This document shows, in pieces, positions 29,253 to 35,875 of a stretch of 64,000 nucleotides of DNA (within the stretch, counting starts at the first letter, position 1; the number at the start of each line of letters is the position of its first letter). The position numbers were made by a program, and so were the translations under genes. Source of the stretch: Cyanobacteriota bacterium (GTDB taxonomy: Bacteria > Cyanobacteriota > Cyanobacteriia > CACIAM-69d). The notes under the pieces are model-generated. The model was not told where the DNA came from. It was given only the letters and a program-made list of their open reading frames with translations, and did not search any database. The stretch lies in assembly GCA_022402445.1 (NCBI GenBank), contig JAKRSF010000004.1, positions 710,120-774,119 on the forward strand. The letters are read 5' to 3'.

Positions 29253-29633
29253 ATGGCCGTCCGCATCACCCTAAGCCCCACCGCCCTTGGGGAAATTGAG
29301 CGCCTTCGCAAGGCCCAGGGCGCACCCCAGGGCCAGCCCATTGCCCTCGGCCTCACGCGGGGGGCCTGCCAGCCCTTGGCCTACCGCCTCAAATTCGGTG
29401 AACTCCCCCCCCCGACAGCGGATGCGCCGAGCGCCAATGCCCCGGTACACCAGGTGGACGTTGGGGGAGGCATCACCTTCCTAATCGCCGCCGAGGATAT
29501 TCCCCATCTCCAGAACCTGCACCTGGACTACGCCGAAGACCTCGTTGGGGGAGCCTTCCGCTTCCAGAACCCGAACGCCGCCGAAGTGTGTGGATGCGGG
29601 GCATCCTTCCAGCCCGCCGCACCGGCCCCTTGA
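29253..29633 (+). CDS. HesB/IscA-family iron-sulfur carrier
   Basis: The 126-residue protein MAVRITLSPTALGEIERLRK has the A-type carrier pattern: a first cysteine in RGACQPLAYRLKF and the C-terminal pair CGCGASF near the end. The first motif lacks the usual G-C-S-G spelling, and an insertion rich in Pro/Ala (PPPTADAPSANAP) sits between the first strands. It likely carries Fe-S clusters or iron in the cytoplasm. It lies just upstream of the ribosomal operon and ends about 60 bases before that promoter. Confidence 0.8.
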   Translation: MAVRITLSPTALGEIERLRKAQGAPQGQPIALGLTRGACQPLAYRLKFGELPPPTADAPSANAPVHQVDVGGGITFLIAAEDIPHLQNLHLDYAEDLVGGAFRFQNPNAAEVCGCGASFQPAAPAP

Positions 29634-29689
29634 ACCCCCGACGGCCCCCTCAAGAAGTTCTGGTCCGCGATCGCGTCGCCATTCCAGCA

Positions 29690-29719
29690 TTGACAGCATC
29701 GAGAGCGTGTTGATATACT
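29690..29719 (+). promoter_or_regulatory. Promoter of the str (rpsL) operon
   Basis: A perfect -35 box TTGACA (29690-29695) and TATACT (29714-29719) are separated by 18 bases. The implied start near 29726 leaves a leader of about 47 bases before the rpsL ATG. Confidence 0.75.
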
Positions 29720-29772
29720 CGGGTGCTGTCAGATTTATGGCGAAGTATTTTCGATTGCGACCGCGGTAACCC

Positions 29773-30147
29773 ATGCCCACCATCCAGCAACTCATCCGAT
29801 CCGAGCGCCAGAAAGCGACGAAGAAAACGAAGTCTCCCGCTCTCAAAAGCTGCCCACAACGGCGCGGCGTCTGCACCCGTGTCTACACCACGACACCGAA
29901 GAAGCCCAACTCCGCGCTGCGCAAAGTGGCTCGTGTTCGTTTGACCTCTGGATTTGAGGTGACCGCCTACATCCCCGGCATTGGCCACAACCTGCAAGAG
30001 CACTCCGTGGTCATGATTCGGGGCGGTCGTGTTAAGGATCTGCCCGGTGTCCGCTACCACATCATTCGCGGCACCCTAGATACCGCCGGCGTGAAGGACC
30101 GTCGCCAGGGACGCTCCAAGTACGGCGCAAAACGTCCTAAGGAATAG
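29773..30147 (+). CDS. rpsL: 30S ribosomal protein S12
   Basis: The 124-residue protein [20 protein letters not shown] and then [20 protein letters not shown] is textbook S12, including [20 protein letters not shown]. It sits at the decoding centre of the small ribosomal subunit. It is the first gene of the str operon, whose order rpsL-rpsG-fusA-tuf-rpsJ is the cyanobacterial and plastid arrangement. A large stem-loop follows in the gap to rpsG. Confidence 0.98.
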
Positions 30148-30157
30148 ATTTCAATCC

Positions 30158-30228
30158 CCGAAAAAAGCTCCACCGGTCCCATGGGCGTGACTAAACGCCG
30201 CATAAGTCTGGTGGTCCGCCTTTTTCGG
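30158..30228 (+). ncRNA. Candidate structured RNA element between rpsL and rpsG
   Basis: CCGAAAAAAGC (30158-30168) pairs with GCCTTTTTCGG (30218-30228) at 10 of 11 positions, and CCACCGG pairs with CTGGTGG inside it. A nested GGCGT/ACGCC hairpin lies at 30184-30199. The T-run is within the stem, so it is not a simple terminator. Its position 11 bases after rpsL and about 195 before rpsG matches the place where E. coli S7 regulates the str mRNA, but no homology to that site is shown. Confidence 0.5.
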
Positions 30229-30422
30229 CTGCTCCCGAGGGCTGGTTGACGGAATTCCAGTCACAGGCCCCATGGCGGAGCGCTTTTTCCCCTAGCTTCA
30301 CCCGTTTTAGCTAGTGGGCGCTGGTTCAGCGCGATCGCCCCCCAAGGGCAATCCACCTCACCCCCCGCGCCCCATGGCCCCGCCACCTTAAAGTTCAAAA
30401 GCGTTTAGATTTTTCGTCAACC

Positions 30423-30893
30423 ATGTCCCGTCGTAACAGAGCCCCCAAGCGCCCCGTCCCAGCCGATTCCGTCTACAACAGCCGACTGGTTAGTATGACG
30501 ATCCGGCGCATCATGAAGCAGGGCAAAAAATCCCTCGCCTCCCGCATCATTTATGACGCCTTTGATCTCATCAAGGAGCGCACCGGTTCTGAGCCCCTTG
30601 ACGTGTTCGAGCAGGCGGTCAAAAACGCCACGCCCCTTGTGGAAGTGAAAGCCCGCCGGGTTGGTGGTGCCACCTACCAGGTGCCCATGGAAGTGCGTCC
30701 CGATCGCGGTACCGCCCTGGCCCTCCGTTGGCTGATCCAATTTTCCCGCCAGCGTCCGGGTCGCAGCATGGTTGCCCGCTTCGCCAACGAGATCATGGAC
30801 GCCGCCAACGAAACCGGCAGCGCGATCCGCAAGCGCGAAGAAACCCACCGGATGGCCGAGGCCAACAAAGCCTTCGCCCACTACCGTTACTAG
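30423..30893 (+). CDS. rpsG: 30S ribosomal protein S7
   Basis: The 156-residue protein [20 protein letters not shown] and [20 protein letters not shown] matches S7 fully, including [20 protein letters not shown]. It binds 16S rRNA as a primary assembly protein and in E. coli also represses its own operon. There is a 275-base gap from rpsL that contains a strong stem-loop. The AT-rich stretch ATTTTTCGTCAACC lies just before the start, with no strong Shine-Dalgarno. Confidence 0.98.
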
Positions 30894-31153
30894 GGATAAG
30901 GGCTGGGGGGTGTATCGTCCATCTGCGATCCCCTGGTTCACCCCCACGCCCCCGAGCTTGGCCATAGCTACACCGCCCACGACTCGATTGGCCCGCCAAT
31001 CTTCAGCCTACGGCGCAGACCTGTGGTAACAAAGTGATTTTAGCGAGGTGGTTTCTGCGCGTGGGTCTTAATAATGCCTCGCCAAGGAATCTCCATAAAA
31101 TCTTTACAAGCATGTAACATGATAATCTGCAGCAGAGATCCAAGGAGGTAGCT

Positions 31154-33229
31154 GTGGGACGATCCACCCCGCTCGAAAAAGTCCGAAATATTGGTATTGC
31201 CGCCCACATTGATGCCGGCAAAACGACGACGACCGAGCGTATTTTGTTTTACTCGGGCGTCGTCCATAAGATGGGTGAGGTGCATGACGGCACCGCAGTG
31301 ACCGACTGGATGGCCCAGGAGCGCGAGCGCGGGATTACGATCACGGCCGCCGCCATCAGCACGAGCTGGCTTGATCACCAGATCAACATCATCGACACCC
31401 CTGGCCACGTGGACTTCACGATTGAAGTGGAGCGTTCCATGCGGGTGCTGGACGGTGTGATTGCCGTTTTCTGCTCCGTGGGCGGGGTGCAGCCCCAGTC
31501 CGAAACCGTGTGGCGTCAGGCCGATCGCTACAAGGTTCCCCGCATTGCCTTCATCAATAAAATGGACCGCACGGGGGCCAATTTTTTCAAGGTCTATCAG
31601 CAGATGCGTGATCGCCTGCGGGCCAACGCAGTGCCGATCCAGATCCCCATTGGCGCAGAAGCGGACCTGAAGGGTTTGGTGGACCTCGTGACCATGCGGG
31701 CCTACATCTACAACGATGACATCGGCCAAGACATCGAAGAAACGGACATCCCTGCCGACCTGCAAGAGGTGGCGGAAGAGTACCGCACCATCATGCTAGA
31801 GGCGGTTGCCGAGCTTGATGATGATCTGATGGAGCGCTACCTCGAAGGGGGTGAGCTGACGGTAGAGGAAGTCCGCGCCACCCTCCGTAAAGGCACCGTG
31901 ACCGGCGCGATCGTACCGGTCCTCTGCGGCTCCGCTTTCAAAAACAAAGGGGTTCAGCGTCTGCTGGACGCGGTGGTTGATTACCTGCCGTCCCCCATCG
32001 ACGTGCCCCCCATCCAAGGCACCTTGGACGATGGCTCCGTGGTGGAGCGTCCCGCTGACGACAACGCCCCCGCAGCGGCCCTCGCCTTCAAGATCATGGC
32101 CGATCCCTATGGGCGTCTAACGTTCATTCGGGTTTATTCCGGCTCGATTAAGAAGGGCAGCTACGTTCTCAATGCCACCAAGGGCAAGAAAGAACGCATC
32201 TCACGCCTGATCGTCCTCAAGGCCGACGAGCGCATCGAGGTGGACGAACTGCGGGCCGGTGATCTGGGGGCAGCCCTGGGCCTCAAGGACACCATCACGG
32301 GCGACACGATCTGCGACGAGAGCGATCCCGTCATCCTGGAATCCCTCTTCGTCCCCGAGCCGGTCATCTCCGTGGCGGTGGAACCCAAAACCAAGCAGGA
32401 CATGGACAAGCTGTCCAAGGCTCTGCAATCCCTCTCGGAGGAAGACCCCACCTTCCGGGTGAGCACGGATCCGGAAACCAACCAAACGGTCATCGCAGGG
32501 ATGGGTGAATTGCACCTAGAGATCCTTGTGGACCGGATGCTGCGGGAATTTAAGGTTGAGGCCAACGTGGGTGCTCCCCAGGTGGCTTACCGGGAAACCA
32601 TTGGCAAGTCCGTCAAGGCAGAAGGTAAGTTTGTCCGCCAGAGTGGCGGTAAGGGTCAGTACGGTCACGTTGTGATCGAGGTGGCCCCTGGGGAAGCCGG
32701 TAGCGGCTTCGAGTTCGTGTCCAAGATTGTGGGGGGTACGGTTCCGAAGGAATACATCGCCCCCGCAGAACAGGGTATGCGCGAGGCCTGCGAATCCGGT
32801 ATTCTTGCCGGTTACCCGCTGATTGACGTCAAGGTGACCCTGGTGGATGGGTCTTACCATGATGTTGACTCTTCGGAAATGGCCTTCAAAATCGCCGGTT
32901 CCATGGCAATTCGCGAGGCAGTCTTGAAGGCTGCTCCGATGTTGCTGGAGCCGATGATGAAGGTTGAAGTGGAAGCGCCCGAGAACTTCCTGGGTGATGT
33001 GATGGGGGATCTCAACTCCCGTCGTGGTCAGATTGAAGGGATGGGCTCGGAGGACGGCCTCGCCAAGGTATCTGCCAAGGTGCCACTGGCAGAGATGTTC
33101 GGTTACGCGACCGACATTCGTTCCATGACCCAAGGTCGTGGAATCTTCTCCATGGAGTTCAGCCATTACAGCGAGACCCCTCGCAACGTGGCTGAAACCA
33201 TCATCGCAAAGAGCAAAGGGAACGCATAA
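31154..33229 (+). CDS. fusA: Translation elongation factor G
   Basis: The 691-residue protein starts with GTG at 31154 after AAGGAGG (31142-31148). The G-domain motif is [19 protein letters not shown], with DTPGHVDFT and [10 protein letters not shown], and the later domains are typical of EF-G (GEFVRQ-type [18 protein letters not shown]). It catalyses translocation. It is preceded by 260 bases after rpsG and followed after 21 bases by tuf. A -10-like GATAAT at 31121 with TTTACA only 12 bases before it is too tight to call a promoter. Confidence 0.98.
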
Positions 33230-33250
33230 CAAGGAAAGGAACGCACACTC

Positions 33251-34465
33251 ATGGCACGCGAAAAGTTTGAGCGCAATAAACCCCACGTCAACATCGGTAC
33301 GATCGGCCACGTGGACCACGGTAAGACGACGCTGACGGCGGCGATCACGATGGCCCTGGCGGCCCGTGGCCAGGCTAAGGCCCAGAAGTACGATGAAATC
33401 GATGCGGCTCCTGAGGAGAAGGCCCGTGGGATCACGATCAACACGGCCCACGTGGAGTACGAGACCAATGATCGTCACTATGCCCACGTGGACTGCCCGG
33501 GTCACGCGGACTATGTGAAGAACATGATCACGGGTGCTGCCCAGATGGACGGCGCGATTCTGGTGGTGTCGGCGGCGGATGGCCCCATGCCCCAAACCCG
33601 TGAGCACATCCTGCTGGCTCGCCAGGTGAACGTGCCGAATCTGGTGGTTTTCCTGAATAAGCAAGACCAGGTGGATGATGAGGAGCTGCTGGAGCTGGTG
33701 GAACTGGAAGTCCGCGAGCTGCTGAGCGACTACGGTTTTGATGGGGATGCGATTCCCATTGTGGCGGGTTCTGCCCTGAAGGCGACGGAAGCCCTGAGCG
33801 GTGGCGCGCCGGATGAGTGGGTCGAGAAGATCTACAAGCTGATGGATGAGGTGGATTCCTACATTCCGACGCCGGAGCGGGATACGGATAAGCCGTTCCT
33901 GATGGCGGTTGAGGATGTGTTCTCGATCACGGGTCGCGGTACGGTGGCGACGGGCCGGATTGAGCGGGGCCGTGTGAAGGTGGGTGAGACGGTGGAAATC
34001 GTCGGCCTGCGTGACACCCGCACCACCACGGTGACGGGGGTTGAGATGTTCCGGAAGCAACTGGATGAAGGGGTGGCTGGTGATAATGCCGGTCTGCTGC
34101 TTCGCGGTGTGCAGAAGGAGGACATCGAGCGTGGGATGGTGCTGGCGAAGCCCGGTTCCATTACGCCCCACACCCAGTTCGAGTCTGAGGTGTATGTGCT
34201 GAAGAAGGAGGAGGGTGGTCGTCACACGCCGTTCTTCGCGGGCTATCGTCCTCAGTTCTACATCCGGACGACGGATGTGACGGGTTCCATCGATGCGTAC
34301 ACCTCTGACGAAGGGGAAAATGTGGAGATGGTGATGCCGGGCGATCGCATCAAGATGACGGTGACGCTGATTTCGCCGGTTGCGATTGAGCAGGGGATGC
34401 GTTTCGCAATCCGTGAAGGTGGCCGGACGATTGGTGCGGGTGTGGTGTCGAAGATCCTCAAGTAG
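33251..34465 (+). CDS. tuf: Translation elongation factor Tu
   Basis: The 404-residue protein has [39 protein letters not shown] and [14 protein letters not shown]. It begins [20 protein letters not shown] as expected. It delivers aminoacyl-tRNA to the ribosome. A ribosome binding site AAGGAA precedes it. The long open frame on the opposite strand over fusA and tuf reflects codon bias only. Confidence 0.98.
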
Positions 34466-34547
34466 GGTCTGATGCTGCTGGGCGCGATCGCGTTTCCTCC
34501 GTCGCTCGATGGCGGGTGAGGGGTGGGGCGATCGCGCGGACCTAGCG

Positions 34548-34621
34548 TTCCGAATCTGAGTCAGGACTGGCGGGGCCATTGCATGGGTGATGGGTTGCCG
34601 GTTCTGACTTAATAATCGGAA
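34548..34621 (+). ncRNA. Candidate structured RNA element between tuf and rpsJ
   Basis: AGTCAGGACTGGC (34559-34571) pairs with GCCGGTTCTGACT (34597-34609) over 13 positions with two G-U pairs. An outer TTCCGA/TCGGAA stem (34548-34553, 34616-34621) lies beyond a 5/6-base internal loop. The apical loop holds CCAT-TGC-ATGG, so a third short hairpin is possible. It ends 67 bases before the rpsJ ATG. No T-run follows, so control of rpsJ translation or processing is more likely than termination. Confidence 0.5.
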
Positions 34622-34688
34622 TGGGTCTTTTAGGAACCTTGAAAATTCAATTACTGCCCAACTAACCCACAGGACGACGGAAGAGAAG

Positions 34689-35006
34689 ATGGCGACGATT
34701 CAACAGCAGAAGATCCGCATCCGCCTCCAGGCTTTTGACCGCAAGTTGCTGGATGCGTCCTGCGACAAGATTGTGGATACGGCAAATCGCACGAGCGCGA
34801 CGGCGGTTGGCCCGATTCCTTTGCCGACGAAGCGGAAGATTTATTGCGTGCTCCGTTCTCCCCACGTGGACAAGGATTCCCGGGAGCACTTTGAAACGCG
34901 GACCCACCGCCGCATTATTGATATTTACCAGCCTTCGTCGAAGACGGTGGATGCGCTGATGAAGTTGGATTTGCCTTCGGGTGTGGATATTGAAGTGAAG
35001 CTGTAG
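34689..35006 (+). CDS. rpsJ: 30S ribosomal protein S10
   Basis: The 105-residue protein [20 protein letters not shown] with [20 protein letters not shown] and [20 protein letters not shown] is S10. It forms part of the 30S head and also the NusB-NusE antitermination complex. It closes the str operon after tuf, which is the usual cyanobacterial place. The bidirectional terminator follows 66 bases later. Confidence 0.98.
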
Positions 35007-35072
35007 GGGATGGCTAGGCGCTGTGGTTTGGCGCTAGTCTCAACGGCTTTGAATATTGGACTTTGAAAAAGT

Positions 35073-35110
35073 AAAAAGCAGCCCCTGATATGCGAGCGGG
35101 CTGCTTTTTT
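35073..35110. terminator. Bidirectional rho-independent terminator (rpsJ / purN)
   Basis: GCAGCCC (35078-35084) pairs with GGGCTGC (35098-35104), flanked by AAAAA on one side and TTTTTT on the other. It would stop both the str operon and the converging purN transcript. Confidence 0.9.
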
Positions 35111-35179
35111 GTGGTTTGTTTATGGAGTTTTGATGGGGATCGAGGGTGGCGTTGGCGATCGCGGCCTCGATCCCTAGGG

Positions 35180-35875
35180 TTAGGAATGGGGTTGGGAGTG
35201 CTGGCGATGGTGGGCGGCCTGGGCGGTGGCGAGGGCGATCGCCTGGGGGAGGATGCGGTGTTCCTGCACCTGGACGCGGGCGTGGAGGGTTTCGACCGTA
35301 TCGGTGGCGAGGACGGGGACGGCGGCCTGGACGAGGATGGGGCCGCAATCCACTTCTAGGGTCACCAGGTGGGCGGTGCAGCCAGCGAGTTTGACGCGGG
35401 CCGCGATCGCCTGGTCAATGGCACGCATCCCCGGAAAACTGGGCAGGAGGCTGGGGTGGATATTAATGGCGCGATCGCGGTAGCCCTCGATGAACACCTC
35501 CGTCACCCGGCGCATCCAGCCCGCCATCACCACCCACTCCACCCCAGCCCGCTGTAGGGCCGACACCACCTCATAGTCAAAGGCTTCGCGGCTGACGAAC
35601 TGGCGATGGTCAATGCAGTGGCTCGGCACGCCCCAGCGCTCCGCCCGAACCGCCACCTTGGCCCCCGGATTGTTGTAGATCACCACCGCCACCTCCGCCC
35701 GCAGGCGGCCATCCGCGATCGCCTGGACCACCGCCTCAAAATTACTGCCGTTGCCCGAGGCTAGGATCCCTAGCTTGACCGGGGGCAGATTGCGATAAAT
35801 TTCTAGCAGGTCCGCCGACAGGTCGGGAAACACTAAACTAGGGCTGGTCAGTTCGGGGCGATCGCTAGCGGTCAT
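35180..35875 (-). CDS. purN: Phosphoribosylglycinamide formyltransferase
   Basis: The 231-residue protein has the folate-dependent transformylase pattern LGILASGNGSNFEAVVQAI, the active-site segment INIHPSLLPSFPGMRAIDQA and LVTLEVDCGPILVQAAVPV. It catalyses the third step of purine synthesis, transferring formyl from 10-formyl-THF to GAR. An N-terminal stretch of about 30 residues before the Rossmann part is common in cyanobacteria. It converges with rpsJ at the shared terminator. Confidence 0.93.
   Translation of the reverse strand: MTASDRPELTSPSLVFPDLSADLLEIYRNLPPVKLGILASGNGSNFEAVVQAIADGRLRAEVAVVIYNNPGAKVAVRAERWGVPSHCIDHRQFVSREAFDYEVVSALQRAGVEWVVMAGWMRRVTEVFIEGYRDRAINIHPSLLPSFPGMRAIDQAIAARVKLAGCTAHLVTLEVDCGPILVQAAVPVLATDTVETLHARVQVQEHRILPQAIALATAQAAHHRQHSQPHS

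What the first reader, a model, noticed from the sequence alone, without database searches (positions are those of the whole stretch)
34548..34621. Three-tier stem-loop upstream of rpsJ
A 13-position central stem (AGTCAGGACTGGC with GCCGGTTCTGACT) with an outer 6-bp stem and a small apical hairpin ends 67 bases before the rpsJ start. No T-run follows. Together with the rpsL-rpsG structure it suggests that several str-operon gaps carry RNA control elements, perhaps an S10 leader.
Basis: seen in the sequence. Interest (0 to 1): 0.6.

Follow-up and report, generated by a model that had tools for sequence, protein, structure and literature searches.

The report
S10 gene leader carrying rRNA-type boxA
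In this cyanobacterium and most of its relatives, the stretch before the gene for ribosomal protein S10 holds a strong RNA hairpin followed by a copy of the ribosomal-RNA signal (boxA) that S10 is known to bind in other bacteria, so the cell probably uses S10 itself to limit how much S10 it makes.

Summary
The stem-loop is real and strong: 34546-34623, -45.7 kcal/mol, z -7.9, 0 of 200 shuffles as stable. A hairpin at this place is conserved as a structure but not as a sequence: 71 of 75 cyanobacterial tuf-rpsJ gaps hold one clearly stronger than shuffles (median z -4.6). The more informative feature lies just outside the reported interval. GAACCTTGAAAATT at 34634-34647 matches the cyanobacterial rRNA boxA, the NusB-S10 (NusE) recognition element. 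It is the only perfect match in this 4.08-Mb genome, whose assembly lacks rRNA operons. In relatives the same motif lies before 16S and 23S rRNA and before rpsJ. A matrix built only from rRNA boxA finds it in 58 of 75 tuf-rpsJ gaps, as an isolated conserved 14-nt island, with the hairpin upstream in 56 of those 58. Median distance to the rpsJ start is 17 nt (41 nt here). Best explanation: autogenous control of rpsJ. Surplus S10, with NusB, binds boxA on its own mRNA and represses translation, as shown for suhB in E. coli, but here without Rho. The hairpin most likely marks or protects the tuf 3' end (leaky terminator or processing barrier) rather than being an S10-binding leader. Binding and regulation are inferred, not shown.

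The parts
33251..34465 (+). tuf (EF-Tu), upstream gene
   Evidence: ORF of 404 aa; used as query to delimit the gaps
34466..34542 (+). first hairpin directly after the tuf stop; two GCGATCGC (HIP1) palindromes in its arms
   Evidence: fold -42.6 kcal/mol, z -3.0; may arise simply from two nearby HIP1 copies
34546..34623 (+). the reported three-tier hairpin (8 + 17 + 7 bp)
   Evidence: fold -45.7 kcal/mol, z -7.85; a hairpin at this place in 71 of 75 cyanobacterial gaps
34634..34647 (+). boxA, GAACCTTGAAAATT (predicted NusB-S10 binding site)
   Evidence: only perfect match in the genome; rRNA-boxA matrix score 22.1 of 24.3; same motif in rRNA leaders and ITS of relatives
34679..34685 (+). purine-rich GGAAGAG, possible Shine-Dalgarno sequence of rpsJ
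   Evidence: sequence; 31 nt downstream of boxA
34689..35006 (+). rpsJ (ribosomal protein S10 = NusE), the controlled gene
   Evidence: ORF of 105 aa; matches S10 chains including the NusB-S10 complexes 3d3b, 3imq, 3r2c, 3r2d
35073..35110 (+). terminator-like hairpin with T-run after rpsJ
   Evidence: fold and sequence

Best explanation
The tuf-rpsJ gap is an autogenous control region for ribosomal protein S10. Step 1 (shown by sequence): the rpsJ leader carries a copy of the rRNA antitermination element boxA in an otherwise unconserved, weakly structured stretch. Step 2 (inferred from the conserved NusB-S10-boxA interaction): when S10 exceeds the free rRNA boxA sites, the NusB-S10 complex binds boxA on the rpsJ mRNA. 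Step 3 (inferred, by analogy with suhB of E. coli): the bound complex, probably tethered to RNA polymerase through NusG, keeps 30S subunits off the rpsJ start, so S10 synthesis falls until new rRNA draws the complex away. In many relatives boxA ends 4-20 nt before the start codon, where simple occlusion is possible. Here the spacing is 41 nt, within the range over which suhB repression still worked. Step 4 (inferred, less certain): the strong hairpin just upstream separates tuf from rpsJ, as a leaky terminator or a 3'-end or processing barrier. It lets tuf mRNA accumulate above rpsJ mRNA and keeps boxA out of tuf-borne structure.
For: Motif identity: GAACCTNGAMAAYT occurs once in 4.08 Mb, in the rpsJ leader. 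In the complete genome G026 its five matches are leader and ITS boxA of one rRNA operon, a second pair with matching spacing and mirrored sequences, and rpsJ (rRNA context of the first pair confirmed by cmscan and ARAGORN). GAACCTTGAAAA is the named ITS boxA of cyanobacteria (PMC8461337). Independent test: a matrix built from 13 rRNA boxA sites scores above 9.6 in 58 of 75 tuf-rpsJ gaps (mean best score over all gaps 14.7, reverse-strand control -0.3). Among relatives it is present in 21 of 28 families, including 6 of 6 genomes of the window's own family. Conservation is confined to the 14-nt motif (about 1.6-2 bits at 10 positions, under 0.5 bit for most flanking positions), and the variable positions (7, 10, 13) are the same ones that vary in rRNA boxA. 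Median distance to ATG is 17 nt, 33 of 58 at most 20 nt. The boxA-start codon stretch here is no more structured than shuffles (z +1.15). NusB is encoded. In one genus boxA also lies 8 nt before nusB, with variants in a few other families. Precedent: E. coli suhB boxA repression, tolerant of insertions up to 100 nt (PMC5725501).
Against: No binding, expression or 3'-end data for this organism. The rRNA operons of this genome are not in the held assembly, so its own rRNA boxA could not be compared. Seventeen of 75 gaps lack a good boxA (several Prochlorococcus, families f5, f14, f17, f18, f20), and in f23 rpsJ is no longer downstream of tuf and has no good boxA, so the control is not universal. 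In E. coli, repression needed the full complex including SuhB, and much of the output depended on Rho, which cyanobacteria lack (Rho RNA-binding domain not found here). The hairpin's role rests on position only.
Confidence: 0.62

Rival explanations
1. boxA here acts as an antitermination or RNA-polymerase loading site, so its effect on rpsJ is positive: the hairpin is the boxB-like partner of boxA, and the pair forms an rRNA-type antitermination module that keeps transcription going through rpsJ.
For: The order hairpin then boxA is the order seen in the cyanobacterial ITS, where a stem ends 3-5 nt before boxA. The hairpin precedes boxA in 56 of 58 gaps.
Against: boxA lies downstream of the hairpin, so it cannot antiterminate it. 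rpsJ is short, last in the cluster and followed directly by its own terminator-like hairpin, so there is little to antiterminate. The hairpin-boxA spacing varies widely (median 37 nt), unlike in the ITS. Cyanobacteria lack Rho (PMC13289151).
Confidence: 0.15
2. The hairpin is the main element: a leaky intrinsic terminator or 3'-end stabiliser of the tuf mRNA that sets the tuf:rpsJ ratio, and boxA is secondary.
For: Strong hairpin in 71 of 75 gaps with unrelated sequences, as expected for a structure-only element. T-rich tails are enriched after these hairpins (15 of 75 with at least 5 T in 8, expected 6.6 with sd 2.4). Terminators between ORFs lower downstream expression in S. elongatus (PMC3219970).
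Against: Most hairpins, this one included, lack a good T-run. The role does not explain the conserved boxA. It is compatible with the best explanation and probably part of it.
Confidence: 0.45
3. S10 or another ribosomal protein binds the hairpin itself, as in a classical ribosomal-protein leader.
For: Position before rpsJ; strong structure.
Against: No sequence or loop conservation among relatives, even within the family. No Rfam leader matches. S10's known extra-ribosomal RNA target is boxA, together with NusB.
Confidence: 0.05
4. The conserved motif is a promoter -35 element (CTTGACA-like) of rpsJ, not boxA.
For: Some copies contain TTGACA.
Against: In at least 20 genomes the motif ends 4-16 nt before the start codon, leaving no room for a -10 element and a start site. 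The most conserved part is GAACC, outside a -35. No promoter match here.
Confidence: 0.03

Closest known systems
suhB boxA autoregulation of E. coli and Enterobacteriaceae (Baniulyte et al. 2017, PMC5725501)
   Same: rRNA-type boxA in an mRNA leader of a Nus-factor gene, close to the ribosome-binding site; expected negative feedback by NusB-NusE.
   Different: The gene is rpsJ (NusE itself), inside the str cluster behind tuf; cyanobacterial boxA consensus; no Rho in the phylum; a strong hairpin precedes boxA.
putative boxA upstream of rpsJ in a few gamma-proteobacterial genera (same paper)
   Same: boxA before rpsJ, proposed NusE autoregulation.
   Different: There reported for three genera (plus two with rpsJ downstream in the operon) and only for gamma-proteobacteria; here found in 21 of 28 cyanobacterial families sampled, with rpsJ alone behind tuf rather than heading the S10 operon.
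cyanobacterial 16S-23S ITS boxB-boxA
   Same: Same 14-nt motif with the same variable positions; hairpin upstream.
   Different: An mRNA leader, not rRNA; hairpin farther away and unrelated in sequence.
E. coli S10 leader (L4-controlled)
   Same: Controls expression of rpsJ.
   Different: That is an L4-responsive leader of the S10 operon; here rpsJ lies behind tuf and no Rfam leader matches.

Membership tests
boxA-controlled Nus-factor mRNA leader (suhB type) | rRNA-type boxA in the 5' region of a Nus-factor gene | tested here: met
boxA-controlled Nus-factor mRNA leader (suhB type) | position and motif conserved across related genomes | tested here: met
   58 of 75 gaps; 21 of 28 families; isolated conserved island
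boxA-controlled Nus-factor mRNA leader (suhB type) | NusB-S10 binds the leader | not testable with these tools
   NusB and S10 genes are present; binding not tested
boxA-controlled Nus-factor mRNA leader (suhB type) | boxA mutation raises expression of the downstream gene | not testable with these tools
   needs reporter assays
boxA-controlled Nus-factor mRNA leader (suhB type) | repression followed by Rho-dependent termination | tested here: not met
   Rho RNA-binding domain not found in the genome; cyanobacteria lack Rho (PMC13289151). This concerns the downstream step, not boxA recognition
intrinsic terminator | G+C-rich hairpin followed by a T-run | tested here: not met
   hairpin met, T-run not
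known ribosomal-protein leader families of Rfam | match to a covariance model | tested here: not met
   none at gathering scores over the window, none at E up to 5 in 29600-35200
rRNA boxB-boxA module | hairpin ending a few nt before boxA | tested here: inconclusive
   10 nt here, median 37 nt in the set, 3-5 nt in the ITS

The most novel reading that the evidence does not exclude
A near phylum-wide feedback circuit in cyanobacteria: rRNA boxA sites and the rpsJ boxA (in some lineages also a nusB boxA) compete for one NusB-S10 pool, so S10 synthesis follows rRNA synthesis without Rho, with a structure-only hairpin insulating the S10 gene from the highly expressed tuf gene.
Probability: 0.45. 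Interest if true: 0.72.

Novelty: new variant of a known kind. Interest (0 to 1): 0.58.

Why it matters
How cyanobacteria match S10 supply to ribosome demand is open: rpsJ sits behind tuf instead of heading the S10 operon. A conserved NusB-S10 site in the rpsJ leader gives a directly testable answer. It would extend Nus-factor autoregulation to a phylum without Rho, separating translational repression from Rho termination, and it yields a small reporter element that reads the free NusB-S10 pool. In the held literature no paper reports boxA before rpsJ in cyanobacteria; subscription papers and preprints could not be searched.

Tried and rejected
Dispersed repeat: rejected, no second copy in the genome. 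Promoter reading of the motif: rejected for lack of room before the start codon and no promoter match. Known Rfam leader: no match. Own rRNA boxA: could not be compared, 16S and ITS not found in the assembly. boxA-like motifs before rpsJ in other phyla (L029-L080): essentially none with simple patterns, one doubtful case in L066; only loosely tested because boxA differs between phyla and many loci had short upstream flanks. Covariation on an alignment: not informative across families because hairpin sequences do not align; in one group of nine with a shared AGCAGA-type stem, pairs 2 and 10 show changes on both sides. Alignment A2 used wrong locus coordinates and was discarded. nusB leader of the window's genome: no good boxA.

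Full report
Observation. The window is cyanobacterial, with rpsL, rpsG, fusA, tuf and rpsJ in order on the + strand. The reported stem-loop between tuf (ends 34465) and rpsJ (starts 34689) is real. The fold of 34545-34624 has three tiers of 8, 17 and 7 bp, -45.7 kcal/mol, z -7.85, no shuffle of 200 as stable. It lacks a T-run, whereas the hairpin after rpsJ (35073-35110) ends in TTTTTT. The sequence is unique in the 4.08-Mb genome and matches no Rfam family.

Relatives. I collected tuf-rpsJ gaps from the genome collection and from 59 related genomes, delimited by tblastn with tuf and rpsJ of the window. In 75 distinct gaps of up to 330 nt or so, the best 60-nt structure beats its own shuffles at z below -2 in 71, median z -4.6. 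The hairpin sequences are unrelated between genera, even within the window's family. The structure, not the sequence, is kept. T-rich tails after the hairpins are about twice as common as at random positions (15 of 75 against 6.6, sd 2.4), but most lack them. In nine relatives with a common AGCAGA-type stem, two pairs changed on both sides. That is modest covariation support.

boxA. Reading the gaps side by side showed a motif just before rpsJ, GAACCTtGAaAAyT, in most of them. In the window it is 34634-34647. In the window's genome the pattern GAACCTNGAMAAYT occurs once, here. The rRNA operons are missing from this assembly, so the comparison was made in relatives. There the motif lies upstream of 16S rRNA and between tRNA-Ala and 23S rRNA, the leader and ITS boxA. 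In G026, one complete chromosome, two pairs about 2.1 kb apart plus the rpsJ site account for all five matches; rRNA context was confirmed by cmscan for the first pair only. A taxonomic paper names GAACCTTGAAAA as the ITS boxA in one cyanobacterial genus (PMC8461337). Over 59 genomes the pattern has 142 matches against 40 for its mirrored control. Some non-rRNA, non-rpsJ matches lie inside coding sequence, for instance a long conserved gene that looks like chlH.

Independent test. A matrix built only from 13 rRNA boxA sites was applied to the gaps. Fifty-eight of 75 score above 9.6 (maximum 24.3), with mean best score 14.7 over all gaps against -0.3 on the reverse strand. By family of the 59 genomes, 21 of 28 have it, including all six genomes of the window's family. 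A ninth family, f9, has the variant GAACCTATCCAACT, not counted. Aligned on the motif, 57 distinct leaders show an island of 14 conserved positions in unconserved sequence, and the variable positions are those that vary in rRNA boxA. The hairpin lies upstream of boxA in 56 of 58. boxA ends a median of 17 nt before the start codon, 33 of 58 within 20 nt; 41 nt in the window. It is missing in several Prochlorococcus and in families f5, f14, f17, f18, f20, and in f23, where rpsJ is no longer behind tuf. Shuffle p-values are bounded at 0.005 by the number of shuffles.

Mechanism. In other bacteria NusB and S10 (NusE) together bind boxA. Both genes are present here. In E. coli a boxA before suhB, itself a Nus-factor gene, mediates translational repression, and repression persisted with up to 100 nt inserted between boxA and the Shine-Dalgarno sequence (PMC5725501). 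That makes the 41-nt spacing here acceptable. The same paper lists putative boxA before rpsJ in three gamma-proteobacterial genera and does not mention cyanobacteria. I therefore propose autogenous control of rpsJ by NusB-S10. Shown here: motif, its identity with rRNA boxA, conservation and position. Inferred: binding, sign of the effect, feedback. Rho's RNA-binding domain is absent and cyanobacteria lack Rho (PMC13289151), so the Rho step of the suhB case cannot apply.

Role of the hairpin. Structure without sequence conservation, directly after tuf, upstream of boxA, fits a tuf 3'-end element, leaky terminator or processing barrier. S. elongatus data show inter-ORF terminators that lower downstream expression (PMC3219970), and most cyanobacterial transcript ends are not canonical terminators (PMC13289151). 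A boxB-like role is possible but the spacing is loose.

Verdict. Observation confirmed; interpretation partly supported, with the S10 link moved from the hairpin to the adjacent boxA. I rate it a new variant of a known kind. The literature search covered only openly licensed papers.

Noticed in passing
L205 (minus strand) and L211-L213; weaker variants in L214, L220, L222, L232: boxA also lies 8 nt before the nusB start in three genomes of one genus (family f25), with diverged boxA-like sequences before nusB in a few other families; the window's own nusB has no good boxA.
   Followed up: partly
window 30148-30422: The rpsL-rpsG gap folds better than all 200 shuffles (z -3.6). A review cites similarity of this cyanobacterial intercistronic region to the S7-binding site of 16S rRNA (PMC10931766).
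   Followed up: partly
window 34466-34542: A second hairpin after tuf, built on two HIP1-type GCGATCGC palindromes; such palindromes close together make inverted repeats by themselves.
   Followed up: no
L164, L171, L172 (family f17) and L173, L174, L176 (family f14): These lineages keep a hairpin after tuf but have no boxA before rpsJ, in gaps of about 55-75 nt; in f17 the hairpin sits very close to the rpsJ start.
   Followed up: no
L168, L169, L170 (family f23): rpsJ is not directly behind tuf, starts with GTG, and has a conserved AAACGCTGAAAATT-like stretch 24-25 nt before the start.
   Followed up: no
L191, L193-L195, L199, L206, L209: Perfect boxA-pattern matches inside a long conserved reading frame (encoding ENLENFL, probably chlH), likely coding coincidence.
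   Followed up: no
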